A stretch of 45,753 nt of DNA from Bartonella gabonensis. Its GTDB lineage: Bacteria; Pseudomonadota; Alphaproteobacteria; Rhizobiales; Rhizobiaceae. The stretch is taken from positions 1-45,753 of the forward strand of contig NZ_CAHOYM010000015.1 of assembly GCF_903679515.1 (NCBI RefSeq), written 5' to 3'. The notes beneath the pieces are model-generated. The model did no database searches. It was given only the letters and a program-made list of their open reading frames with translations, and was not told the origin of the DNA. A program made the translations under genes and the position numbers. Shown here piece after piece: positions 8,245-20,918 of the stretch (positions are counted from its first letter, which is position 1; each line of letters starts with the position of its first letter).

Positions 8245-9303
8245 TTAAGGTATTTTTTTCGCAAACAGTTCTTTGTAAACACTTTCAATTTCGCTTGCTT
8301 CTTTTTCCAAAGGAAAATGCGTACGAACATGGGTTAAAGCTTTCTTTCCGGCTGCCAATGTTTTTTCTACATCAGCAAAATAAGGTTCAATAGCTGCCGT
8401 TAAGGCTTCCCCATCTCCTACTTTAACCACTAATCCTGTTCCTTTCACCACCAATTCTTTAAAAATTCCGACATCACTTGCTACCACAGCTGTTTGTGAT
8501 GCCATTGCCTCTAATGGTGTTAAACCAAAACCTTCCAAACGAGAAGGTGTTACATAAAGCGATAAACGACGATACCACAAAGGTGTGTCTAGAATCTCAC
8601 CAAGGAAAATAATGCGATCTTCCAGGCCAGCTTTAGTAACCTTTTGGCGTAATTCTTTTTCAAAATGATAATGTTGCTCTGTCGTACGACCAGCGATAAT
8701 CGCTGTCCACTCTGGGTAGCGTGGCAATAATGCTATCATGGAATCAACAAATAAATCTGTTCCCTTTGAGCTGCGCACACGCCCAAAACACCCTACCGCA
8801 TATTTTCCTGGAAACCCAGACGAAGAAAAACAATCATCAAGAGTCTGTGGTGGTGTAAAACGTCTCACATCTACCCCATGCATAATAACCTTATGCGGCA
8901 CTTCTAGATAAGCGCCCGTATGTGTACTGGTAGCAATCACTCTATCCATACGGCGAATCAACCATTTGGTAAAAGGCTTATGATGACGTTGTGAAGCCGA
9001 CGTAAAGATAAGTTTCAGCTTCATCTTCAAGACATCACGCAAAAAGATCCCACAAAGCATCTCAATATTGCGCCTTGCATGCCAAATGCGAAACAACTTC
9101 CCTTTCGGACTTTTCCAAAGTCCGAAAAGGTCCCTAAAGGCAAGAGCTGGCAATTTTTTTGGTAGTCCAAACCCCAAAGTGGATATACGCACACCCTGTT
9201 CGCGCTGCAGTGGAACGAGCTGAATAATCGTAGATGTTACTCCCGATAAACGCCTTTTAAAATGAGGCGCAATAATCTCAGTTTCTTCCAAAGACACACG
9301 CAT
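8245..9303 (-). CDS. lpcC: Glycosyltransferase family 4, LpcC-like (LPS core mannosyltransferase)
   Basis: A 352-residue group-1 (GT4) glycosyltransferase with the GT-B fold. The C-terminal donor-binding half has VGCFGRVRSSKGTDLF near residue 170 and the conserved EGFGLTPLEAMA motif near 263. The N-terminal acceptor half has HARRNIEM and FTSASQRHH, segments I associate with Rhizobium LpcC, which adds mannose to the lipopolysaccharide inner core. The sugar and acceptor specificity is inferred from that resemblance and not proven. It follows greA on the same strand after a 14-base gap, so read-through from greA is likely. No strong ribosome binding site is seen before the ATG. Confidence 0.75.
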   Translation of the reverse strand: MRVSLEETEIIAPHFKRRLSGVTSTIIQLVPLQREQGVRISTLGFGLPKKLPALAFRDLFGLWKSPKGKLFRIWHARRNIEMLCGIFLRDVLKMKLKLIFTSASQRHHKPFTKWLIRRMDRVIATSTHTGAYLEVPHKVIMHGVDVRRFTPPQTLDDCFSSSGFPGKYAVGCFGRVRSSKGTDLFVDSMIALLPRYPEWTAIIAGRTTEQHYHFEKELRQKVTKAGLEDRIIFLGEILDTPLWYRRLSLYVTPSRLEGFGLTPLEAMASQTAVVASDVGIFKELVVKGTGLVVKVGDGEALTAAIEPYFADVEKTLAAGKKALTHVRTHFPLEKEASEIESVYKELFAKKIP

Positions 9304-9317
9304 AATTATTGAGATAT

Positions 9318-9791
9318 TTAGATATACTGAACCTTAATGATTTCGTAATTATGCGCACCACCGGGCGCATTCACTTCAATCACATCACCCTCTTGCTTGC
9401 CAATAAGCGCACGCGCAATCGGTGAAGAAATAGAGATTTTACCAATTTTTACATCAGCTTCTTGATCCCCTACAATCTGATATACCTTTTTTTCTTCAGT
9501 ATCCTCATCCAAGAGTTTAATAGTCGCTCCAAATTTGATTTTGTCGCCTGAAAGACGAGAGACATCTATAACTTCTGCCCGCGCGATATAATCTTCAAGC
9601 TCATTAATACGCCCCTCATTATGACTTTGTGCTTCTTTAGCTGCATGATACTCGGCGTTTTCTGACAGATCACCATGAGCACGAGCCTCAGAAATTGCTT
9701 CAATAATTCGTGGACGTTCCTGTTGTTGACGCCAACGCAACTCTTCTTTAAGACTTTCAAAACCAGCTGTAGTCATCGGAACTTTTTCCAT
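9318..9791 (-). CDS. greA: Transcription elongation factor GreA
   Basis: A 157-residue protein that binds in the secondary channel of RNA polymerase and stimulates cleavage of backtracked RNA. It has the N-terminal coiled coil with the acidic tip ([19 protein letters not shown], about residues 35-53) and the C-terminal FKBP-like domain ending in a GxxIEV-type segment. Length is typical. An AAAGGGA site precedes the ATG. A consensus-like promoter lies just upstream, overlapped by a terminator (see those entries). The downstream glycosyltransferase follows after 14 bases. Confidence 0.96.
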
Positions 9792-9805
9792 AATCCGTCC
9801 CTTTC

Positions 9806-9834
9806 TATTATACGGAAGGTTTAATAAAAATACA
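9806..9834 (-). promoter_or_regulatory. Predicted greA promoter
   Basis: On the minus strand TTGTAT and a perfect TATAAT are separated by 17 bases (TTTTATTAAACCTTCCG). Transcription would begin only a few bases before the AAAGGGA site and the greA ATG, giving a very short leader. The coordinates are approximate within a few bases. Confidence 0.6.
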
Positions 9835-9867
9835 AAAAACGGCTTCCAAAATTACTTCTGGAATCCG
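9834..9867 (-). terminator. Rho-independent terminator just upstream of greA
   Basis: Stem CGGATTCCA / TGGAAGCCG (one internal mismatch) with a 10-base loop, followed by TTTTTT on the minus strand. It ends right where the predicted greA promoter begins. No protein gene lies upstream on this strand before 10127, so it either ends a short leader-type transcript or marks a lost upstream gene. Confidence 0.7.
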
Positions 9868-10127
9868 AAAACTACGATCTTTTTCATTATATAGCACAGT
9901 ATCCCTGTTTTCCATATAAAAATAAATAAAGGGAACAAAACATGCACTAATAGTGTTTAAAACATCTCATTTTGGTGTTTAAAACGTTAAACTTCACTCT
10001 CCTAACTTCAAAATCTCATAAAGAAGAAAGAATTGTAATTTTTTTTATTTTATCATAGTCTAGCAAAGGAAATCATATGGGATAGGAAAAGAGAAGGATA
10101 ATTTCTAGAGAAGTTCTTTGCAGAAAA

Positions 10128-10424
10128 ATGAAAAATTTCGTCATTTTTTTTATGTTTGGCTCTTTCTTATTAGCCACAAAAATGTCTGAAGCAGCAGATG
10201 CCTTTGTGACAAAAAATCTTAATTTCAGAACAGGACCTAGCACTCAGTATGCACTTTGTGGCTTAATATCTGCTGGAGAATTGGTTTTTGTTAAAAATTG
10301 TAAAGGAAATTGGTGTCATATCCGATATAACACTCAAATAGGTTGGGTGTCATCTCGTTATCTTTCATTTAAAGACGGAAATGATCTTTATCACACATAC
10401 ACAATGTCTTTAGTTCCCAAATAG
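10128..10424 (+). CDS. Small secreted SH3-domain protein
   Basis: A 98-residue protein with a clear Sec signal peptide (residues 1 to about 22, hydrophobic core FVIFFMFGSFLLATKM, likely cleavage after SEA) and one bacterial SH3 (SH3_3) domain. The domain has the typical LNFRTGPSTQYALCG start, NCKGNWCHIRY and a GWVSSRYL end. Such domains usually bind peptidoglycan or peptides in the periplasm. Two cysteines (in LCG and NCKGNWC) could form a disulfide after export. The gene is monocistronic and its ribosome site is weak (GCAG). The exact role is unknown. Confidence 0.8.
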   Translation: MKNFVIFFMFGSFLLATKMSEAADAFVTKNLNFRTGPSTQYALCGLISAGELVFVKNCKGNWCHIRYNTQIGWVSSRYLSFKDGNDLYHTYTMSLVPK

Positions 10425-10710
10425 ACCACATATGATTATTCTCCATAACAGCCATAATAACTTATGCCCTCTTGAAGATCATCATGGCAAGAATGCAATA
10501 GTGTTCCACGAACGACCACCAATATACCCCCTCCAAAGAAATATTTCGAGGAATTTATATTAATAGAAAAAACTTTATCAATATTCTCATGAAAGCGCCA
10601 GTAAACCAAAACAAACCTGTTCAATAACGTTTTGCTGTTATCGTAATGAAATTGTAAAAATTAGTATTCCCTTTAAAATCACCAGTACTTTTCTATCAAA
10701 GGATACAACA
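10425..10710. other. Interval between SH3 protein and uvrB
   Basis: No supported gene. A 62-codon minus-strand frame (10436-10624) ends SYYGCYGE and has two cysteines near its C terminus, but has no signal peptide, no ribosome site and no domain I recognise; I leave it uncalled. The uvrB ribosome site (AAGGA) lies at the right edge. Confidence 0.4.
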
Positions 10711-13032
10711 ATGAAAAATGGTGTCACTGCAACCGTAGAAGCTCTTTCTGCTCTCATTGCTTCAGGTAATCCTCTTTTTAAAAATGGTGCGTTATGGACA
10801 CCTCACCGTCCTATTTATCCTGAAAAATCTGAAGGTGGTATTCCCTTTCAACTTGAAACATCTTTTAAACCGGCGGGAGATCAACCTCAAGCCATTAAAA
10901 CTCTGGTTGATGGAATTGAAAAAGATGAACAAACACAAGTGCTTTTGGGAGTTACTGGCTCTGGAAAGACCTATACAATGGCGAAAGTCATTGAAAAAAC
11001 CCAACGTCCAGCTCTCATCTTAGCCCCCAATAAAACTTTAGCGGCGCAGCTTTATGGGGAATTTAAAAGATTTTTTCCTCACAATGCTGTCGAATATTTT
11101 GTTTCCTATTATGACTATTATCAACCGGAAGCCTATGTTGCACGTTCTGACACTTATATTGAAAAAGAATCCTCTATTAATGAACAAATCGACCGAATGC
11201 GTCATGCTGCAACACGCGCCGTCTTAGAGCGTGATGACGTTATCATCGTTGCATCTGTCTCTTGTATCTATGGAATTGGTTCCGTGGAAACCTATACGGC
11301 GATGACTTTCCAAATAGAAAAAGGCGAAAAACTCAATCAACGAAAATTCTTGGCTGATTTAGTTTCTCAACAGTATTATCGACAAGACATTAATTTCGTT
11401 CGTGGTTCCTTTCGTGTGCGAGGAGATACCATTGAAATTTTTCCTGCTCACCTTGAAGATCGTGCTTGGCGTATCTCGCTTTTTGGTGATGAAGTAGAAA
11501 AAATTACCGAATTTGATCCTCTAACAGGACAAAAAACAGATGACCTTCAATCGATTAAAATTTATGCCAATTCACACTACGTAATACCGCGTCCAACCTT
11601 AAATCAAGCAATGAAATCGATCAAAAGAGAACTGGGACAACGTCTTGATGAATTGAATGCTGCTGGACGTCTTTTAGAAGCACAACGCTTAGAACAGCGT
11701 ACAATTTTTGATTTAGAAATGTTAGAAACTACAGGTTCATGTCCGGGGATTGAAAATTATTCACGTTATTTAACAGGACGAAATCCTGGTGAACCACCAC
11801 CAACCTTATTTGAATATATTCCACTCAATGCTCTTGTTTTTATCGATGAAAGCCATGTAACGATTCCCCAAATTGGTGGCATGTATCGCGGTGACTTTCG
11901 CAGAAAAGCAACCCTAGCAGAATATGGTTTTCGCCTACCTTCTTGTATGGACAACCGTCCTTTGCGCTTTGAAGAATGGGATGCCATGCGTCCACAAACA
12001 ATTGCTGTCTCAGCAACACCTGGACGCTGGGAAATAGAACAATCTCACGGCATTTTTGCTGAACAAATTATTCGCCCAACAGGACTTGTTGATCCAGAAA
12101 CAGAAGTTCGTCCAGCACGCACCCAAGTCGATGATGTTGTGAGTGAAATTCGTAAAACAATTCAAAAAGGCTACCGTACATTGGTCACTGTGCTGACCAA
12201 GCGTATGGCTGAAGATTTGACAGAATATCTCCACGAACAAGGCATTCGGGTACGCTATATGCATTCTGACATTGATACATTAGAGCGTATTGAAATTCTT
12301 CGTGATCTGCGACTTGGTACCTTTGATGTCCTCATTGGGATCAACCTTCTTCGAGAAGGCTTGGATATTCCAGAATGTGGTTTTGTTGCCATATTAGATG
12401 CCGATAAAGAAGGTTTTTTGCGTTCAGAAACCTCGCTCATCCAAACCATCGGACGTGCCGCACGCAACGTAGATGGTCACGTTATTCTTTATGCAGATAC
12501 CATTACGGGCTCTATAGAACGTGCTTTACAAGAAACGAAAAGACGTCGACAAAAACAGATAACCTATAACGAAAAACATCATATTACCCCAACCAGTATC
12601 AAAAAAAATATCGACGATATTCTCAATGCAGGAAGTGAAAACCATCAAACTCTTACAAATATTTCTAATTTTATTACGCAAAGTGATATGGATCGTAACA
12701 ATTTAGCAAGCCATATTCAATCTCTAGAAAAATCAATGCGTGCAGCAGCTGCTGATCTTAACTTTGAAGAAGCAGCACGGCTTCGTGATGAAATCAAACA
12801 ACTCCAAAAAATAGAACTCGCAATTGCGGATGATCCCTTACCAGATCACCGTGAACAATCTATCCATGCTCCCATGATACAATCAAATTTTTTTACAAAG
12901 CCAGGTCTTGATCACATGGGCCCAACAATGGATACTGGTATTTTAAAAAATCGAAAGAGCAAAAGCAGATCTCACCAAAACACTCTTAAGATAACAACAA
13001 AAAAACACAAAAAAAAACCACCCAATCAATAA
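10711..13032 (+). CDS. uvrB: Excinuclease ABC subunit B
   Basis: The damage-verifying helicase-like subunit of nucleotide excision repair, acting with UvrA and UvrC. It has 773 residues, longer than the roughly 670 of E. coli, because of about 45 extra N-terminal residues and a basic C-terminal tail; both occur in related alphaproteobacteria. Walker A is GVTGSGKT at 80-87. The damage-binding beta-hairpin region is [13 protein letters not shown] near 130. A DEAD-like FIDESH follows, then a helicase C-terminal domain ([21 protein letters not shown]). The UVR motif ([19 protein letters not shown], about 685-703) binds UvrC. The tail ends in a lysine-rich stretch. An AAGGA site precedes the ATG. 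It is a single-gene unit. Confidence 0.96.
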
Positions 13033-13775
13033 TCTAAAGCTCTTCAAAGCATTTACAATCAATCTTATCCCTATCAAATCTTCATAAGATCACAGGAAAA
13101 AGTACTACTCCGCAAATAAATACCCTAAATGTCAATACCCACTACAGTTGAATAAATAAGCAATTTCAGAAAATGCTTTTTCATTGTCTTCGTCTTCGCA
13201 CACAATCCAGCTGCTTTAAATATCCATCAAACGTGAAAACGACTTTAAAACTTCTCTCAATTCTAAAGTGCTAGCAGCGAAATAAAAGAATACCTTTTCA
13301 TATCTCAAAACTCCCCTATATAGCGTGATAAAGAATATAAAGCCGTGCTTTTATCATCAGCCTCTTACAAAGCCATTAAACAAGACAACATTCTTTATAA
13401 ATCATGCAAGTAAAAACAGAATTTATCATGTTCATATGAATCTGTAATAATAAGAGTAATATTTATTTTTCCTATTTCTATCGTTTATTTTAAACGATTA
13501 TAAAATAAAAAAAAGATAGAAGCATTATTGTACATCAAATTATATTACAATAATCAAAAATAAAAACTATCAATACAACATTATAAATCAAACAAAATAG
13601 GGTATATTTTGCAAACAAAATTTTGTCACGATTTTATGTATATTTATACTGATATTCAACCAAATGGCTTTTTATTCATTTTGTTAAAATAAAATCAGAA
13701 ATCGTTCAGACTGTGTTCAGTTTGATACGTGTAGAACGTAAAAAAATTGCGAATTATACAACAAGGAGCATCGCT
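13033..13775. other. Long AT-rich interval upstream of the BA14K gene
   Basis: About 740 bases with no supported gene, becoming very AT-rich from 13440 on. Just before the BA14K gene is a small direct repeat GTTCAG...GTTCAG (13704-13720). The frame of the BA14K gene is open from 13713, but the added residues do not look like part of a signal peptide. I see no clear promoter that I would defend. Confidence 0.4.
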
Positions 13776-14579
13776 ATGAAAAAAACGATCAAATTAGCGG
13801 TATTATTGGGAATGTCAAATGTAACTGTTTTTGCACCATTAAGCACAGCACTTGCGAATCTAGGAATGAATATAGAATCGATGCCTGGATCTTATATTGA
13901 GAAGCATATGGATGATATAAGGAAAAAAATGGATAGTCATTTCTCTTATCCTGGTTTTGACAAACCTTCTACTCCTAAAAAAAATCCCCCTTCTCATAAA
14001 CAACCCCAACAACAACATCACCACCACCATCACTACTATCATCATCCCGAACACCATCATCACCAACATCATATTAACCATATAAAGCGAGAACAGGGCA
14101 AGCAACATATTGAAAAGCATCACTCTTCTCATATTTCTCATGTTTCTTATAATCTTCCTAGTTATCAGTTTGACCACAGAAGGCAAGAACTAAGCAAGCA
14201 ACATATTGAAAGCAAAACATATAATTATGTCGAACGCAACAAAACAACACACCACCATATACATACGAATCCTGGAGCTCTCGATAACTCAGGGGATGTT
14301 TTAGTATTGGGTGTTCTTGGCCTTGCTGCCGGTGCACTTCTTAGTAAGGTTTTCAAAAAAACAGAAAAACCACAGAATCAAATGGTGTATCAACAAATTC
14401 CGCAAAAGCAAGTTATTTATGAAACTCAATCAACAGCCATATATCAACCGCTTCAGCAACAGTCATCCCATGATTGGCTTCAATATTGCAAGAAAAAATA
14501 CCGTTCATTCAATCCAAAAACCGGTACTTTTAGAGGCCATGATGGGCTGGATCACTTTTGTTATGCACCATTGAACTAA
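13776..14579 (+). CDS. Histidine-rich BA14K-family secreted protein
   Basis: A 267-residue protein. I start it at ATG 13776, which has AAGGAG 7 bases before it and begins a proper signal peptide (MKKTIKLAVLLGM...STALA). The mature part has three regions. First is a strongly histidine-rich block (about residues 70-175) with runs such as HHHHHH and HHHHQHH, and with a short repeated unit KQHIE. Second is a hydrophobic segment (VLVLGVLGLAAGALLSKVF, about 190-208). Third is a C-terminal BA14K-like motif: YCKKKYRSFNPKTGTFRGHD then HFCY. The family was named from a Brucella immunoreactive protein with lectin-like activity. The histidine block suggests metal or heme binding, which is inference. A bidirectional terminator follows. 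Confidence 0.8.
   Translation: MKKTIKLAVLLGMSNVTVFAPLSTALANLGMNIESMPGSYIEKHMDDIRKKMDSHFSYPGFDKPSTPKKNPPSHKQPQQQHHHHHHYYHHPEHHHHQHHINHIKREQGKQHIEKHHSSHISHVSYNLPSYQFDHRRQELSKQHIESKTYNYVERNKTTHHHIHTNPGALDNSGDVLVLGVLGLAAGALLSKVFKKTEKPQNQMVYQQIPQKQVIYETQSTAIYQPLQQQSSHDWLQYCKKKYRSFNPKTGTFRGHDGLDHFCYAPLN
14098..14211 (+). repeat. 18-base direct repeat inside the His-rich gene
   Basis: GCAAGCAACATATTGAAA occurs exactly at 14098-14115 and 14194-14211, 96 bases apart and in the same frame (KQHIE). It suggests internal duplication within the low-complexity region and could be a site of length variation by recombination. Confidence 0.85.
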
Positions 14580-14611
14580 CTTCTATTATATTCTACTAAA
14601 GAAGTTTTAAG

Positions 14612-14647
14612 TAACCGAAAAAATGCTTTCAAGTGTTTTTTCGGTTA
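14612..14647. terminator. Bidirectional terminator between convergent genes
   Basis: A 12-base perfect stem TAACCGAAAAAA / TTTTTTCGGTTA with a 12-base loop. The A and T tracts in the arms let it work in both directions, ending the BA14K gene (plus) and the MBL hydrolase gene (minus). It overlaps the hydrolase stop codon at 14645-14647. Confidence 0.75.
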
Positions 14648-15295
14648 TGTATTAAGCTCTTGAAGAAAAGGATTCCACTGGCGCTCATAGCCTAAAGAAC
14701 TTCCAGGACCATGCCCGCAAATAAAACGAACATCATCGCCTAAGGGCAAAACCTTTTCTCGAAGCGATTTCATTAATTCTTTATGAGAACAAAAAGGAAA
14801 GTCCGTACGTCCAATAGAACCACGAAACAACACATCACCCAATAAGGCAAAACGTTGTTTTTCATTAAAATAAATCACATGACCAGGAGAATGTCCTAGT
14901 GTATGAAAGACATTGAATATATGTCCAGCAAAATGAACACTATCGCCATCTTCTAACCATTGATCAGGAATACAACTGCGCACATCCGTAATGCCATAGT
15001 TTTTTGCACTCTCAACCACTGTATCCATCACAGGTTTATCATGACGATGTGAACCAATAATTTTAACATCAAGGGCTTCTTTTGCTTGCATTGCAGCTCC
15101 CACATGATCAAAATGACCATGTGTTATCCAAATAGCTTCAACGATAACATCCATCTTTTGGATCTCTGCTTGAATTTGAGACCTATCACCTCCAGGATCA
15201 ACGAGAACCCCCACTTTTTGTTCATTATCAAAAAGCAAAGTGCAATTTTGTTGAAAAGCCGTAACCGGAATAATATGGGCACTAAAATGACTCAT
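14645..15295 (-). CDS. MBL-fold metallo-hydrolase (glyoxalase II-like, YcbL type)
   Basis: A 216-residue cytosolic metallo-beta-lactamase-fold enzyme. The metal-binding THGHFDHVG motif lies near residue 58. Downstream metal ligands are in the HTLGHSPGH segment (near 132), the GDVLFRGSIGR segment and the final FICGHGPGS. Length and motif spacing match the short glyoxalase-II-like group that hydrolyses glutathione or other thioesters, without the extra C-terminal domain of true GloB. Substrate is not certain. An AAAGGGT site precedes the ATG. It is convergent with the BA14K gene and divergent from the two-component pair. Confidence 0.88.
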   Translation of the reverse strand: MSHFSAHIIPVTAFQQNCTLLFDNEQKVGVLVDPGGDRSQIQAEIQKMDVIVEAIWITHGHFDHVGAAMQAKEALDVKIIGSHRHDKPVMDTVVESAKNYGITDVRSCIPDQWLEDGDSVHFAGHIFNVFHTLGHSPGHVIYFNEKQRFALLGDVLFRGSIGRTDFPFCSHKELMKSLREKVLPLGDDVRFICGHGPGSSLGYERQWNPFLQELNT

Positions 15296-15438
15296 GATAC
15301 CCTTTTCAAAGGAAAATTTCCACGCCTATAAAGAAGAATTTTCTACTTTATAGGATAAAATAGCCTGCTCGACAGTTTTATGCAACTTATGTAAACTTGA
15401 ATTTTGTAAAAATGAAATTTTTGTCAAGGTTTTAAAGA

Positions 15439-16143
15439 ATGATCGATCATGTTCAAGTTTTGTGTGACGATGCTCCTCACCTTCTTGTGATTGATGACGA
15501 TACACGTATACGCAATCTTTTATTTCAGTTTCTTATTAAAAATGGATTTCGTGTTTCCGTTTCAGCCAATGCCAATGAGGCAAGACAACTCTTGGCAAGT
15601 TTAAATTTTGATCTTCTTATCGTTGACGTCATGATGCCGGGTGAAAACGGTATCAGCCTTACCCATTCACTCCGCCAAACAAAAAATGTTCCTATCCTCA
15701 TGCTAACGGCTTTATCAGAAACAGACAGTCGTATCCGTGGATTAGAAGCAGGTGCTGATGATTATCTGGCTAAGCCATTTGATCCTCGTGAACTTCTCCT
15801 TCGTATCAACGCCATTTTACGACGAGGTTTTCCTCTTAACCAACCCAAAATTGAGCAAATCGTTTTTGGGCCTTATATATTTTCAATTTCACGGCGCGAA
15901 CTCAAAAGGGGGAGAGAAATTATTAAGTTAACCGATAAAGAACAAAAAATGATGGTCATTTTTGCTGAAAATGCAGGGAGTATCATTCCACGCCATCAAT
16001 TTGTAATGGATGACAAAACTATCAGTGAACGTGCTATTGATGTACAAATCAACCGCCTGCGTCGTAAGATCGAAAGAAATCCAGCATTGCCTATATGGCT
16101 CCAAACCGTACGAGGAATAGGGTATAAGCTCTCAATTGAATAG
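15439..16143 (+). CDS. OmpR-family response regulator
   Basis: A 234-residue two-component transcription regulator. The receiver domain covers about residues 14-130, with acidic residues DDD near 19-21, phospho-acceptor D63 in LLIVDVMMPG, T90 and K112. The OmpR/PhoB winged-helix domain covers about 140-232 (AIDVQINRLRRKIERNP, then TVRGIGYKL). The partner histidine kinase starts 8 bases after its stop codon. The pair resembles OmpR/EnvZ rather than ChvI/ChvG (BatR/BatS) of the Bartonella virulence system. The target genes cannot be inferred. Confidence 0.9.
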   Translation: MIDHVQVLCDDAPHLLVIDDDTRIRNLLFQFLIKNGFRVSVSANANEARQLLASLNFDLLIVDVMMPGENGISLTHSLRQTKNVPILMLTALSETDSRIRGLEAGADDYLAKPFDPRELLLRINAILRRGFPLNQPKIEQIVFGPYIFSISRRELKRGREIIKLTDKEQKMMVIFAENAGSIIPRHQFVMDDKTISERAIDVQINRLRRKIERNPALPIWLQTVRGIGYKLSIE

Positions 16144-16151
16144 GCGCAAGA

Positions 16152-17492
16152 ATGATCAAACCTTTAAGATTTTTTTTTCGATGGTTAACGAAAAAGATGC
16201 CTAAACGGCTTTATGCGCGTTCTTTGATCATCATTATAGCGCCGATGGTTCTCCTGCAAACAGTGATTGCTTACGTCTTTATGGAACGTCACTGGCAAAT
16301 GGTAACTGAGCGTCTTTCAACGGCTGTCGTGCATGATATTGCAGCCATTATTGATATTATTGAAACATACCCACAACAAGATAACTATGAAGATATCAAG
16401 CGTATTGCACAACAACGTATGGGATTAAACATTGCTATTCTTCCACCGGCTCCTCTTCCTCCTCTAGGACCTAAACCATTTTTTGCAATTCTTGATTATT
16501 TTCTCAGTGAAGAAATCACCCGCCAAATCAATCGTCCCTTCTGGATTGATACTGTAGGGGATTCTGATCTTGTTGAAATCCGTATCCATCTTGGCCACAA
16601 CATCTTGCGCGTCTTTGCGCCACGCAGCCAAGCTTATGCTTCCAATACCGCTATTTTTTTAAGCTGGATGGTAGGAACAGCCCTTGTTTTATTGCTAATC
16701 GCCATTTATTTCTTGCGCAATCAAATTAAACCCATTCAACAATTGGCTGAAGCAGCTGAAAGTTTTGGACGTAGTCGCCCTTTACCAACAGGATTTCAGC
16801 CACAAGGAGCCGATGAAATTCGTCGTGCTGGCATTGCTTTTTTACGCATGCGTGAACGGATTGAACGGCAAATCGAACAACGCACCATGATGCTTTCAGG
16901 GGTAAGTCATGATTTAAGAACTATTCTTACACGCTTTAAACTTCAGCTAGCATTAGCAAATACTGATTTTGATATTAAACTGCTTGAACAAGATGTCAGT
17001 GATATGCAAAATATGTTGGAAGGTTATCTTGCTTTTGCCCGTGGCGAAGGAAGTGAGAGTGTCAAGACTTTTGATTTAAATGCTCTTATGCAAAAATTCT
17101 CTACCGATGCCAACCTTCATAAACGTCAATTTTCCTACACCATTAAAGGTCCTACACAAATACAAGTGCGTCCACGCGCCTTTACACGCCTAGTTAACAA
17201 TCTTGTATTAAACGCATTTTGTTATGCTACAACTATCAAACTCACAGCCATATGCCAACAAGAATCCTTTATCTTGACGATTGATGATGACGGACCTGGA
17301 ATTCATAAAAATATGCGTACAGAGGTCTTTAAACCATTCTTTAGACTCGACAAAGCACGCAATCAAGATGCAAGCGGAACAGGACTGGGTCTTTCTATTG
17401 CCCAAGACATAGCACGTAGCCACGGAGGCAACATTCAATTAGATGACAGCCCTCTAGGGGGCTTGCGTGCTATTCTTGACATACCTCTATGA
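16152..17492 (+). CDS. EnvZ-like sensor histidine kinase
   Basis: A 446-residue inner-membrane kinase that partners the preceding regulator. It has a first membrane segment at about 25-45 (SLIIIIAPMVLLQTVIAYVF), a periplasmic sensor of about 125 residues, and a second segment at about 172-190. A HAMP linker follows, then HisKA with H253 in GVSHDLRT, and a HATPase domain (N-box LVNNLVLNAF, G1 DDDGPGI, F FKPFFR, G2 GTGLGLSIAQDI). EnvZ-type kinases normally read HDLRTP after the phospho-histidine; here residue 258 is isoleucine instead of proline. The N-box is also slightly unusual (LVLNAF where family members usually have LIxNA). All catalytic glycines are kept, so I expect it to be functional. 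Confidence 0.9.
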   Translation: MIKPLRFFFRWLTKKMPKRLYARSLIIIIAPMVLLQTVIAYVFMERHWQMVTERLSTAVVHDIAAIIDIIETYPQQDNYEDIKRIAQQRMGLNIAILPPAPLPPLGPKPFFAILDYFLSEEITRQINRPFWIDTVGDSDLVEIRIHLGHNILRVFAPRSQAYASNTAIFLSWMVGTALVLLLIAIYFLRNQIKPIQQLAEAAESFGRSRPLPTGFQPQGADEIRRAGIAFLRMRERIERQIEQRTMMLSGVSHDLRTILTRFKLQLALANTDFDIKLLEQDVSDMQNMLEGYLAFARGEGSESVKTFDLNALMQKFSTDANLHKRQFSYTIKGPTQIQVRPRAFTRLVNNLVLNAFCYATTIKLTAICQQESFILTIDDDGPGIHKNMRTEVFKPFFRLDKARNQDASGTGLGLSIAQDIARSHGGNIQLDDSPLGGLRAILDIPL

Positions 17493-17538
17493 GCAATCTT
17501 TTAACAAACCGTCCGTAAAAAATAACAGAATTGATATT

Positions 17539-18039
17539 TTAGGCACTCCCTATCGTTTCAAATAAAGTATATTGCAGTGCCTTGTAAGCGCTTTCTCCCG
17601 ATAAAGCCACCATCTGAAAAGCAACATAATGACTTTCACAAACTTTTAGTGCGTGTATCAACAATGTTTCAACTTGTATATGAGACGGATGCGCTCCACC
17701 AGCCAAAAGAAGCCCTTGTCTATAAATAACAGAATTATTCCTTTGCCAGTAATCAAAATGTCCCAACAATAACTTTTCATTAATTGCTAGCAATAAACGT
17801 TGTATTTCCGATGTTCGAGCATTTTCAATAGAAAGATCAAATGAACAAGCCAAATGAAGTGCTTCATGCTCTTCCATCCATGAAAAAGCAAGACGATAAT
17901 TTGCCCGTTTTCCTTCTACACAAACGCTAATTTCATCTTGGGCATCCCGCTCAAATGACCAATCATATTCACAGGCAATCTGTTCGATAAAGTCAACAGG
18001 ATGCTCTTTTCTTTCTGTGGCGCAAAATGCAAGCCTCAT
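17539..18039 (-). CDS. YbjN domain-containing protein
   Basis: A 166-residue cytosolic protein of the alphaproteobacterial YbjN group, with a chaperone-like (type III secretion chaperone fold) domain. The frame is open to 18180, but family members begin near the HPVDFIEQIA segment, so I start at the ATG at 18039 (protein begins MRLAFCATERK). Conserved stretches include DWSFERDAQDEI, FSWMEEHEALHLACSFD, INEKLLLGHFDYW, LLLAGGAHPSHIQVE and YTLFETIGSA. YbjN is linked to stress and motility regulation in enterobacteria; the function here is unknown. A nine-C run lies about 125 bases upstream. Confidence 0.85.
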   Translation of the reverse strand: MRLAFCATERKEHPVDFIEQIACEYDWSFERDAQDEISVCVEGKRANYRLAFSWMEEHEALHLACSFDLSIENARTSEIQRLLLAINEKLLLGHFDYWQRNNSVIYRQGLLLAGGAHPSHIQVETLLIHALKVCESHYVAFQMVALSGESAYKALQYTLFETIGSA

Positions 18040-18423
18040 CACAATCCTCAATCCTCTTAAAACATGGTAAACAGAATATAAACCACTTAAATTGTAACAA
18101 TATTTTGTTACAATCAGAACCTTTACACCAAACAAATACACATTAAAAACATCAACACTACACACCCCCCCCCAGAACATAATCGCGCTCTTTAGGGTAA
18201 CCTGATCGTCATAAAACGAATCATCAAGTCTTTTCAGTGTATTGATACAATTTCATAGCGCCAGCCCCCCTGATTCAAAAAAATGTATTTTACCCCCAAA
18301 AAAAATTAAAAATAAAGAAATTCCCACCCTAACAGACTCAAGATTAAGCGTTTTTTAGTTTCACGCATCCTATTGAAAAATTGGGGATATTTTTTAAAAG
18401 CTTCTTTTTTTAAAGAAACTATT
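18040..18423. other. Interval between ubiK and ybjN
   Basis: Contains the C9 tract and otherwise low-complexity AT-rich DNA. I see no further gene, terminator or RNA. Confidence 0.4.
18165..18173. repeat. Nine-C homopolymer tract
   Basis: An uninterrupted run of nine C (G on the ybjN strand), the longest G/C homopolymer I noticed in the window and striking in an AT-rich intergenic region. It lies 126 bases upstream of the chosen ybjN start. Confidence 0.9.
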
Positions 18424-18681
18424 TTACTTTTTTCGTGCCTGCTTTTTTTCTAAATCATCAAGACGCCTTTTCAAATCAGCATTATCAGCATGGATTTTCA
18501 GCACCATCTCCTTAAAGGTCTCAAATTCTTCACGTGAAACAAGATCAAGTTTATTGGCTATCTTTTCGGCCTGCACACGAAAAGCTGTTCCAGCTTCACG
18601 TCGTATACCCTGCGCGACGTCAGCGGCATCTGTTGCTAATTTTGCTAATTCATCAAGAATACGGTTTGAGCCATTACGCAT
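18424..18681 (-). CDS. ubiK: Ubiquinone biosynthesis accessory factor UbiK (BMFP family)
   Basis: An 85-residue small helical protein. The N-terminal amphipathic part (ILDELAKLATDAADVAQGI) is followed by REEFETFKEMVLKIHADNADLKRRLDDLEKK, a coiled coil ending in basic residues. Members of this family (formerly DUF526, YqiC) trimerise, bind membrane and assist aerobic ubiquinone synthesis with UbiJ. The length is standard. An AAGGA site lies just before the ATG. It is divergent from lgt. Confidence 0.88.
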   Translation of the reverse strand: MRNGSNRILDELAKLATDAADVAQGIRREAGTAFRVQAEKIANKLDLVSREEFETFKEMVLKIHADNADLKRRLDDLEKKQARKK

Positions 18682-18985
18682 AACATTTTTCCTTAAATTT
18701 TAATATTGATGCACGCACTATAACGTATTCTCATAACATTTAGATACTGTAATTTGTTCCTTTTAGCCTATTTTATCCTACTATGCAGCTTCTTCATAAT
18801 AATTTTGTTTAAAATTTTTTATATTCCTTTTACCATCATAATTTTTTATTACGATAAACTAGTGGAAATCTATTCCCCTTTTTGACTTGTCTCCTTCCTG
18901 ACTTGACCATTGTGTATTCATCTGTCATTTCTGACCATCAGAGTCACTCCATATCCATCTCATATAATGTTAAAGTGCTTAATTC
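18682..18985. other. Divergent interval between ubiK and lgt
   Basis: About 300 bases that must hold the promoters of both neighbours. No element is clear enough to name. Confidence 0.35.
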
Positions 18986-19864
18986 ATGAACAATCTTGTC
19001 TGTCCAGCCATTTCTTTTCCGTCTTTTCTTGATCCTGTCATTATCCAGCTAGGCCCCATAACACTTCATTGGTATGGACTTGGTTACATCGTGGGTATTC
19101 TTTTTGCTTGGTGGTATGCGCAAAAATTATTAAAAAAATCATCTCTATGGCATAAAAACCACCCTCCTATGGATAAAGAGAAGATCGGAGATTTTGTTGT
19201 CTGGTCTGCCATAAGTATTGTTGTTGGAGGACGTTTAGGACAAGTCCTTGTATGGGATCCTATTTATTACTTTAACCATCCAAGTACTATCATCGCCGTA
19301 TGGGATGGGGGGATGTCTTTTCACGGTGGTCTCATTGGCATTATCATTGCAATGATTTTGTTCGCTCGTAAAAATAACATCAACATACGAGCCATGTTTG
19401 ATATCATTGCTGCCGGTGCACCTATCGGTATCGGCATTGTACGAATTTGCAATTTCATCAATCAAGAATTATGGGGCAACGTTACCACACAACCTTGGGC
19501 AGTTTGTTTTCCCCTAGATCCTTACTATTTACCGCGCCATCCAAGCCAACTTTACGAAGCATTTATGGAAGGATTTATTCTCTTCATTCTTCTCTTCATT
19601 GTTATTTTTACCTGCAAAGCATTCAAACGCCACGGGACTGTATCAGGAATATTTATTATAGGTTATGCAATAGCACGCAGTATCTCAGAAGTTTACCGTG
19701 CTCCTCAAGAAGATCCTGAATGGTTCTCTACTCTTTTCCATTCTACAGGCTTTACCTATGGCATGGCTTTATCTCTTCCCATGCTTCTTTTAGGGTTTTA
19801 TCTCCTCCTTCAAGCGTTTAAAGACAAATCTAGCGAAAATGGAATCCCTCAAAGAAAAAATTAA
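18986..19864 (+). CDS. lgt: Prolipoprotein diacylglyceryl transferase
   Basis: A 292-residue polytopic inner-membrane enzyme that moves diacylglyceryl from phosphatidylglycerol to the lipobox cysteine of lipoproteins. The active-site loop SFHGGLIG is near residue 111, and the Lgt signature (here [15 protein letters not shown]) is near 150. A later arginine is in [11 protein letters not shown]. At least seven hydrophobic segments are visible. The stop codon overlaps the start of the next gene by 26 bases, so they are translationally coupled. The ribosome site before the ATG is weak. Confidence 0.95.
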
Positions 19865-20918
19865 AAAAATCATCGCATCTCATGGCCCTATTACCGTCAG
19901 TGAATATATGACATTGGCGCTCACAGACCCTCAATTTGGCTATTATCAAACACAAATACCTTTTGGGCGCACTGGTGATTTCATAACAGCACCCGAGGTA
20001 AGCCAATTATTTGGAGAAATGATTGGCATTTGGCTTCTTGCAAATTGGAAGGCCCATGGTTGTCCTCAGCCTTTTATTCTTGCTGAAATAGGACCAGGAC
20101 GTGGAACTTTGATGGATGACATTTTGCGAACCATCCAAAAGCTTTCTACAACAGCATTTAATGCTGCTGAAATTTTTCTGATTGAAACAAGTAAAAAACT
20201 CGCAAAAGAACAAAAAAAAACTCTTGCTCCTTATCAGAAACAAATCCACAGTATTAAAAATTTTGATCAAGTCCCTGCAAAACCTCTCTTTTTCATTGGC
20301 AATGAATTCCTCGATACACTCCCCATCAATCAATATATTAAAGTCAATGGTGAATGGAAAGAACGCCGTATTACAGTCAATCAAGAGGGAGATTTTATCT
20401 TTATTGCTGCCCCGCATAAATTTCCCTCTTCTTGTCTACAAACCTATGGTTCTAAAGTCCCTGACGGAACAATTTTTGAACATGCGCCTTCGCGGCATCA
20501 ATTCATGCAACAAATCAGTCACCATTTAGTACAAGTCACAGGTTCTGCTCTGCTTATTGATTATGGGGCTTGTGATCTTGCCTTTGGCGATACACTGCAA
20601 GCACTCTCAAAACATAGATTTCGTGATGTTTTTGAAGCTCCAGGTCAACATGATTTAACATCCCATGTTGATTTTTCTTTTTTAAAAAATATAGCCCTTG
20701 AACAGGGCTGTTTTGCTGAAATCTTAGAACAAGGAGACTTTCTTTTAAAAATGGGGCTGTTAGAACGCGCAAAACAGCTTGGAGTGGGCAAAAATGCTTC
20801 CTTGCAAAACAAAATCCGCCTCGATATCGAACGGCTCGCTGGTCCAGATCAAATGGGCAAACTCTTTAAAGTTTTACATTTTAGTGATAAAAATATATCT
20901 ATACCTCCTCAATTTTGA
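19839..20918 (+). CDS. SAM-dependent methyltransferase, MidA/NDUFAF7 family
   Basis: A 359-residue class-I methyltransferase of the DUF185 family. The N-terminal [19 protein letters not shown] and [19 protein letters not shown] are family hallmarks. The SAM-binding glycine motif is [14 protein letters not shown] near 85-98. Further conserved parts are [10 protein letters not shown] and LLIDYGACD. The mitochondrial homologue methylates an arginine of complex I subunit NDUFS2. Whether the bacterial protein does the same is inference. It overlaps lgt and is followed, after 79 bases, by the yfiH-like gene, forming a probable three-gene unit. Confidence 0.9.

What the first reader, a model, noticed from the sequence alone, without database searches (positions are those of the whole stretch)
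13776..14579. Histidine-rich BA14K protein with a duplicated KQHIE unit
BA14K-family proteins are usually short and not histidine-rich. This one inserts about 100 residues packed with histidines between the signal peptide and a membrane segment, then ends with the BA14K motif. The histidine tract suggests metal or heme capture at the envelope, relevant to a hemotrophic genus. An exact 18-base duplication suggests the region changes length.
Basis: partly seen in the sequence, partly recalled or inferred. Interest (0 to 1): 0.6.

Follow-up and report, generated by a model that had tools for sequence, protein, structure and literature searches.

The report
Histidine-armed BA14K envelope protein
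This Bartonella gene is the local version of an old envelope protein shared with soil rhizobia, behind the same promoter box, but with an unusually long histidine-rich arm whose job is still untested.

Summary
In detail: a 267-residue protein with a signal peptide, 32 histidines, an exact 18-base duplication, a hydrophobic segment and a true BA14K C terminus (Pfam E 7e-12). It is not an isolated oddity. uvrB, this gene and an MBL hydrolase lie together in 66 of 71 Bartonella stretches; rhizobia carry a 133-170 residue version at a related locus with a short His/Arg/Tyr arm. In Bartonella the arm ranges from 28 to 147 residues and this one is the longest. All but two of 77 Bartonella copies keep at least 6 arm histidines, but two have 2, and rhizobia have a smaller form, so a specific link to hemotrophy is not supported. 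The duplication is shared with B. florencae. New here: a tandem TTCAG-N6-TTCAG box, 11 bp before a -10 element, conserved (<=1 mismatch) in 72 of 76 Bartonella upstream regions and 19 of 20 related rhizobial genes. That is the layout of an OmpR/PhoB-type activator site, and an OmpR/EnvZ-like pair lies two genes downstream. Best reading: a response-regulator-controlled envelope protein with a Bartonella-specific His-rich extension. What the arm binds is unknown.

The parts
13705..13720 (+). tandem promoter box TTCAG-N6-TTCAG, 11-bp direct repeat, 71 bp before the ATG
   Evidence: 0 mismatches within 100 bp of the start in 66 of 76 Bartonella upstream regions, <=1 in 72 of 76; alignment
13732..13737 (+). 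likely -10 element (TAGAAC here; genus consensus TANNAT), 11 bp after the box
   Evidence: columns 27-32 after box start; T27 and A28 invariant and T32 97% in the 72 boxed promoters, this window having C at 32
13776..14579 (+). BA14K-family envelope protein gene, 267 aa
13776..13856 (+). Sec-type signal peptide (residues 1-27, ending A-L-A), by inspection
   Evidence: conserved in A1
13857..14297 (+). N-terminal arm, residues 28-174, mostly low-confidence (disorder-like) in the model, 29 His
14013..14129 (+). densest His block (residues 80-118)
   Evidence: dN/dS 0.21 against B. florencae versus 0.86 for the linker before it, but 0.94 for the overlapping repeat region 96-150; Fisher p 0.0035 on rounded non-synonymous counts, His block vs linker
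14068..14115 (+). repeat copy 1 (ends with the exact 18-mer, KQHIE)
14164..14211 (+). repeat copy 2
14289..14351 (+). hydrophobic glycine-zipper-like helix (residues 172-192)
   Evidence: sequence; helix 175-188 in the model at low confidence
14352..14465 (+). Q/Y/P-rich tether
14475..14564 (+). BA14K domain (residues 234-263) with two conserved Cys (238, 262)
   Evidence: pLDDT block means 78-92 over residues 231-260
10711..13032 (+). uvrB, conserved upstream neighbour in Bartonella
14645..15295 (-). MBL-fold hydrolase, convergent neighbour
15439..16143 (+). OmpR-type response regulator (candidate EssR, inferred)
   Evidence: best OmpR-model hit of the genome
16152..17492 (+). EnvZ/CpxA-like histidine kinase (candidate EssS, inferred)

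Best explanation
The gene is the Bartonella orthologue of an ancestral Rhizobiaceae BA14K envelope protein. Shown by sequence: a signal-peptide-like N terminus, a hydrophobic glycine-zipper-like helix, a Q/Y/P-rich tether and a small two-cysteine BA14K domain; a conserved locus next to an MBL hydrolase and close to an OmpR/EnvZ-type two-component pair; and a deeply conserved tandem promoter box spaced like an OmpR/PhoB-family activator site. Inferred: a response regulator (EssR or its partner CenR are the candidates) binds the box and switches the gene on under envelope stress; the protein is anchored in the envelope, the BA14K domain contacts envelope or host carbohydrate, and the disordered His-rich arm is a multivalent, pH- and metal-sensitive binder of anionic envelope polymers that lengthened within Bartonella.
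For: Synteny: uvrB, BA14K and MBL together in 66 of 71 Bartonella rows (the other five lack a partner in the stretch fetched, some at contig ends). S. meliloti CP090106 has BA14K - MBL - four genes - response regulator - ATP-binding protein (kinase position) - tRNA-binding - proC - YbjN - UbiK - lgt - methyltransferase. Of 29 MBL loci of other genera in the family, 16 have a short BA14K gene of this type within the roughly 1.5-kb flank, 3 only a long different BA14K-domain protein, 10 none; three plasmid-collection records (S. meliloti, Shinella, R. leguminosarum, two of them found through BA14K itself) add three more. Box: <=1 mismatch in 72 of 76 Bartonella upstream regions, the reversed pattern never better than 2 mismatches (3 of 76); 19 of the 20 related rhizobial genes at -67 to -105, 15 exact, the miss being a second copy in L272; 25 of 69 order-wide BA14K genes with <=1 mismatch against 0 of 69 for the reversed pattern. 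-10 element at a fixed distance. GTTCAK-N5-GTTCAK occurs 8 and 6 times in the S. meliloti and Shinella records, control 0 and 0; genes after it include a further BA14K protein, a secreted His/Arg/Tyr-rich 99-mer, other exported proteins and Hsp20. In Brucella ovis the BA14K gene BOV_A0688 loses expression in cenR and essRS deletions; EssR is closest to OmpR and EssS resembles CpxA and EnvZ (PMC10746171, passages), as does the pair here.
Against: That the local pair is EssRS is inferred; no labelled EssR sequence was compared. No binding or expression data exist for the box. The CenR motifs I read are TGA-N8-TGA (PMC9275681) and an inverted AgTCAC repeat (PMC9561847); the box holds TGA-N8-TGA only on the opposite strand, whereas 28 of 31 CenR sites run with transcription. 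In this genome the box has no good match before the second BA14K gene (best: one mismatch in the 8-base TTCA core, at -172), none before the local response regulator and none before Hsp20, and TTCAG-N6-TTCAG is at chance level genome-wide (3 sites, control 4). Several S. meliloti and Shinella sites precede housekeeping genes or lie inside a gene on the other strand. His-block constraint rests on few changes, and the overlapping repeat region (dN/dS 0.94) and the helix (8 non-synonymous, 1 synonymous) show none. Some copies have lost much of the helix. Inner- versus outer-membrane topology is open. The BOV_A0688 protein was not compared and may be another BA14K paralogue.
Confidence: 0.55

Rival explanations
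1. The arm is a metal (Zn, Ni, Cu) or heme trap in the envelope, useful to a blood-borne genus.
For: 29 His in the arm and His-block amino acids more conserved than the linker before it; poly-His binds divalent metals in general (established chemistry).
Against: Arm His in a smaller form in free-living rhizobial relatives and elsewhere in the order; nearly lost in G010 and G041; no Pfam family other than BA14K above its cut-off; no heme gene recognised by eye among the ORFs of 9000-20000; the listings for Bartonella with histidine-rich and heme (4 papers) show nothing on this subject.
Confidence: 0.2
2. The arm is a surface-exposed, fast-evolving antigen or adhesin whose length and composition drift under host pressure.
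For: Arm length 28-147 across the genus; N-linker dN/dS 0.86 and repeat region 0.94; two copies at this locus in several genomes; BA14K first described as an immunoreactive protein and called lectin-like (PMC11466379, passage).
Against: His block more conserved than the linker before it; surface exposure not shown; no homopolymer of 9 or more in 73 of 77 copies, so no sign of phase switching in most.
Confidence: 0.15
3. The arm is near-neutral low-complexity sequence that grew by slippage and is merely tolerated.
For: Repeat-like CAY tracts; His fraction falls as the arm lengthens (rho -0.48); long polyQ/polyH in some copies that also lost much of the helix.
Against: Mixed CAT/CAC codons (21/11); conserved positions just before the helix (H143, T148, E153, T157 invariant in the 12 proteins of A1); at least 6 arm His in 75 of 77 copies.
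Confidence: 0.1

Closest known systems
BA14K family PF07886 (lectin-like 14-kDa proteins of Brucella and rhizobia)
   Same: C-terminal domain, signal-peptide-like N terminus; zipper-type members share the whole core
   Different: Arm of 147 residues with 29 His, versus 11-58 residues in the 16 of 20 related rhizobial proteins where my pattern could measure it
BA14K proteins of S. meliloti (UIJ94077.1), R. leguminosarum pSK03 (WP_017961454.1) and Shinella (L278)
   Same: Same promoter box and core architecture; an RR/kinase pair nearby in S. meliloti and R. leguminosarum, the MBL neighbour in S. meliloti
   Different: 139-151 aa with 2-4 His; in R. leguminosarum pSK03 an oxidoreductase stands where the MBL gene is expected
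CenR / EssRS envelope-stress regulon (PMC10746171, PMC9275681)
   Same: Includes a BA14K gene in B. ovis; OmpR/EnvZ-like pair
   Different: Box not shown to be an EssR or CenR site
Bartonella hemin-binding proteins (Hbp)
   Same: Envelope, same genus
   Different: No barrel family among the Pfam hits; no direct comparison with Hbp was made

Membership tests
BA14K (PF07886) | C-terminal 30-residue motif over the curated cut-off | tested here: met
   45.5 bits vs 26, residues 234-263
BA14K (PF07886) | exported protein with an N-terminal signal peptide | tested here: inconclusive
   seen by inspection and conserved; no signal-peptide predictor available
BA14K (PF07886) | lectin-like sugar binding | not testable with these tools
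   needs protein
Ancestral Rhizobiaceae BA14K locus | MBL neighbour and same promoter box | tested here: met
   13 of 29 MBL loci in the family lack a short BA14K gene in the flank
Metal- or heme-binding envelope protein | binds metal or hemin | not testable with these tools
   no binding data; composition only
Bartonella Hbp hemin-binding proteins | outer-membrane barrel family | tested here: not met
   no barrel family among Pfam hits at E up to 1
CenR/EssR regulon | regulator binds the promoter | not testable with these tools
   box conserved; identity of regulator inferred
SSR contingency locus (PMC11466379) | homopolymer of 9 or more in the gene | tested here: not met
   longest run here is A8; 4 of 77 orthologues have A9. 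The second BA14K gene of this genome (C6) has A9 near its start, so it is the likelier match to the published locus

The most novel reading that the evidence does not exclude
A small, previously undescribed regulon marked by GTTCA[GT]-N5-GTTCA[GT] controls secreted His/Arg/Tyr-rich and BA14K envelope proteins across Hyphomicrobiales, and Bartonella has stretched its main BA14K member into a long His-rich arm that works as a pH- or metal-gated envelope binder.
Probability: 0.25. Interest if true: 0.6.

Novelty: new variant of a known kind. Interest (0 to 1): 0.4.

Why it matters
BA14K proteins were found in 85 of 121 genomes sampled across the order and one is needed for normal spleen colonisation by Brucella abortus in mice (passage in PMC10746171), yet their job is unknown. 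A promoter box conserved from Bartonella to Sinorhizobium gives a directly testable handle on what switches them on, in harmless bacteria, and the graded arm length across Bartonella gives a natural series for asking what the histidines do.

Tried and rejected
Phase variation by homopolymers: not supported for this gene. Known fold for the model: Foldseek gave 3 PDB matches, best E 6.9; VIA-align aligned 14 chains, none with Z 2 or more; whole-model confidence is low (mean pLDDT 51.7, pTM 0.19). PDB sequence search at E up to 10 gave 30 matches, best E 0.026, mostly on the His block like purification tags. Broad box regulon in this genome: the 19-base pattern with 2 mismatches gave 30 + 56 matches against 28 + 25 for the control, an excess not followed further; the core pattern is at chance level. 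Box before Hsp20 in this genome: absent. B. quintana temperature transcriptome: no lectin, 14 kDa, uvrB or envelope mention in the main text (PMC3595295, find). BvrR papers: PMC9491525 has no BA14K or lectin mention, PMC10538546 no TTCA; passages only. Tree: 15 of 71 locus rows were dropped because too little uvrB or MBL had been fetched and several supports are low, so it is only a guide.

Full report
What is there. The ORF at 13776-14579 encodes 267 residues. Read along the chain: a Sec-type signal peptide by inspection, ending A-L-A at residue 27; an arm of 147 residues with 29 histidines; a hydrophobic, glycine-rich helix (about 172-192); a Q/Y/P-rich tether; and the BA14K domain at 234-263 (Pfam E 7.1e-12). 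AlphaFold is confident only for the BA14K domain (block means 78-92 over residues 231-260, a helix and a short hairpin); most of the arm has pLDDT under 50. No solved structure was found to resemble it by sequence or fold.

How unusual it is. I compared it with 69 BA14K proteins from other genomes of the order (70 loci, one dropped for want of a start; 30 top-scoring hits and 40 hand-picked from a capped list). Median length 156 and median His fraction 0.029; this protein has 267 and 0.120. Two of 69 reach its His fraction, none its densest 20-residue stretch.

The Bartonella series. BA14K matches occur in 71 of 71 Bartonella genomes, and relatives of this very protein in 70 of 71 (the miss, G062, is 85% complete). 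I fetched 70 stretches, read the genes, and with the window's own copy obtained 77 proteins of 100 residues or more. uvrB, BA14K and MBL occur together in 66 of 71 rows. Arm length runs from 28 to 147 residues (median 97) and arm His from 2 to 32; this protein has the longest arm. The part after the arm is 77-110 residues. His number grows with arm length (rho 0.72) while His fraction falls (rho -0.48); related sequences were not corrected for. Genomes G010 and G041 have 2 His each in the arm; the other 75 copies have 6 or more. Short, His-dense arms (28-37 residues, 9-10 His) belong to 13 larger genomes (G003, G004, G014, G043-G045, G056-G061, G063); those in the tree branch deepest.

The duplication. 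The closest relative is B. florencae (L064; 77% identity in A1). It has both KQHIE units with a 17-base core common to all four copies, 29 residues apart instead of 32. The next relative on the tree, G011, has one. So I infer one duplication in the common ancestor, then small length changes between the copies. Between these two species the His block (residues 80-118) has dN/dS 0.21, near BA14K itself (0.13) and unlike the linker before it (0.86) (Fisher p 0.0035 on rounded counts). Against this, the overlapping repeat region 96-150 has 0.94 and the helix 8 non-synonymous to 1 synonymous change. The numbers are small.

An older locus. The response regulator downstream led to S. meliloti CP090106, whose record shows cold-shock protein - BA14K - MBL hydrolase - four genes - response regulator - ATP-binding protein - tRNA-binding protein - proC - YbjN - UbiK - lgt - methyltransferase. 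The window shows BA14K - MBL - response regulator - kinase - two reverse-strand genes (the second with the look of UbiK) - a gene with the look of lgt - a methyltransferase-like gene (these labels are mine). The S. meliloti protein is 141 aa with two His. I then looked near the MBL gene in the family (matches in 59 of 61 genomes, 30 loci given, one of them the window's): of the 29 others, 16 have a short BA14K gene of this type in the flank, 3 only a long different BA14K-domain protein, 10 none. Three records of the plasmid collection add S. meliloti, Shinella and R. leguminosarum; the last has an oxidoreductase in place of MBL but the regulator pair nearby. The 20 genes of these 19 loci encode 133-170 residues with 1-9 His. 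The ancestral form is therefore most likely short-armed, and the long arm a Bartonella elaboration.

The promoter box. Aligning upstream regions of 19 Bartonella genes showed a block in poorly conserved DNA: TTCAG-N6-TTCAG at 13705-13720. Within 100 bp of the start it is exact in 66 of 76 and within one mismatch in 72 of 76 Bartonella upstream regions; the reversed pattern does no better than two mismatches (3 of 76). Because the box was found on that set, the independent tests matter: 19 of the 20 related rhizobial genes carry it with at most one mismatch (15 exact; the miss is a second copy in L272), and 25 of 69 order-wide BA14K genes do (15 zipper-type, 10 not), against 0 of 69 for the reversed pattern. 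A -10 element follows at a fixed distance (T27 and A28 invariant in the 72 boxed promoters). A tandem 11-bp direct repeat about one helical turn before the -10 is how PhoB/OmpR-type activators sit (established knowledge). In the S. meliloti and Shinella records the GTTCAK-N5-GTTCAK form occurs 8 and 6 times, control none. Genes after it include a second BA14K-like protein in Shinella, a secreted His/Arg/Tyr-rich 99-mer in S. meliloti, exported proteins, and Hsp20 in both, but also pgsA, a GST, one site inside an antiporter gene on the other strand, and sequences I recognise (recall) as coaD and galU. In the window's own genome the core pattern is not enriched (3 sites, control 4), is absent before Hsp20 and before the local response regulator, and has no good match before the second BA14K gene. 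In Bartonella it may serve this gene almost alone.

Which regulator. The neighbouring response regulator is the best OmpR-model match of the genome (203 bits against 150 for the next), with an EnvZ/CpxA-like kinase after it. In B. ovis, EssR is closest to OmpR, EssS resembles CpxA and EnvZ, CenR and EssR share binding sites, and a BA14K gene loses expression when cenR or essRS is removed (PMC10746171: abstract, section 12 and passages). The kinase RL3453, reported there as 68% identical to EssS, is needed for root attachment, and its authors conclude that its mutation affects the whole bacterial surface (PMC11406972, passages). The match of the local pair to EssRS is an inference. The CenR motif published for Rhodobacter (PMC9275681, section 11 part 1) fits the box only on the other strand. 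Other regulators are linked to Brucella ba14k too: VjbR and CtrA with MucR (PMC12548446, passage) and RpoE1 (PMC8315932, passage); BA14K genes also change when RdsA is depleted in Rhizobium etli (PMC9022086, passage).

What the arm does. Nothing here tests binding. The comparative pattern - a short cationic His/Arg/Tyr arm in free-living rhizobia, a longer His arm in Bartonella, near loss in two Bartonella genomes - fits a general envelope binder better than a heme trap, but does not exclude metal or heme binding. Searches for Bartonella with BA14K (3 papers), with histidine-rich and heme (4 papers) and with zinc, histidine-rich and envelope (0 papers) gave no description of this arm in the listings; of these papers only PMC11466379 was opened (passages). 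Its A9-10 BA14k repeat more likely belongs to the other BA14K gene, which here has A9 near its start.

Noticed in passing
L212 (genome contig C13:42500-47500): Three tandem genes that look (recall) like Bartonella Bep effectors; two carry poly-His stretches near the C terminus, the only other places with six consecutive His codons in the genome.
   Followed up: no
L213:1830-2297 (contig C6): Second BA14K protein, 155 aa, without a zipper, with A9 near its start; likelier candidate for the published A9-10 BA14k repeat.
   Followed up: partly
loci of G006, G016, G051, G053, G064, G065, G069; G043: Two BA14K copies (tandem in six; in G053 on two contigs); some long poly-His copies have lost part or most of the hydrophobic helix. 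G043 has two further partial matches beside its copy.
   Followed up: partly
L298:1144-1443 (S. meliloti CP090106): Secreted 99-residue His/Arg/Tyr-rich protein with the GTTCA box 59 bp before its start.
   Followed up: partly
L293, L296: Hsp20 genes of Shinella and S. meliloti both follow a GTTCAK-N5-GTTCAK box; the two Hsp20-like genes of the window's genome do not.
   Followed up: yes
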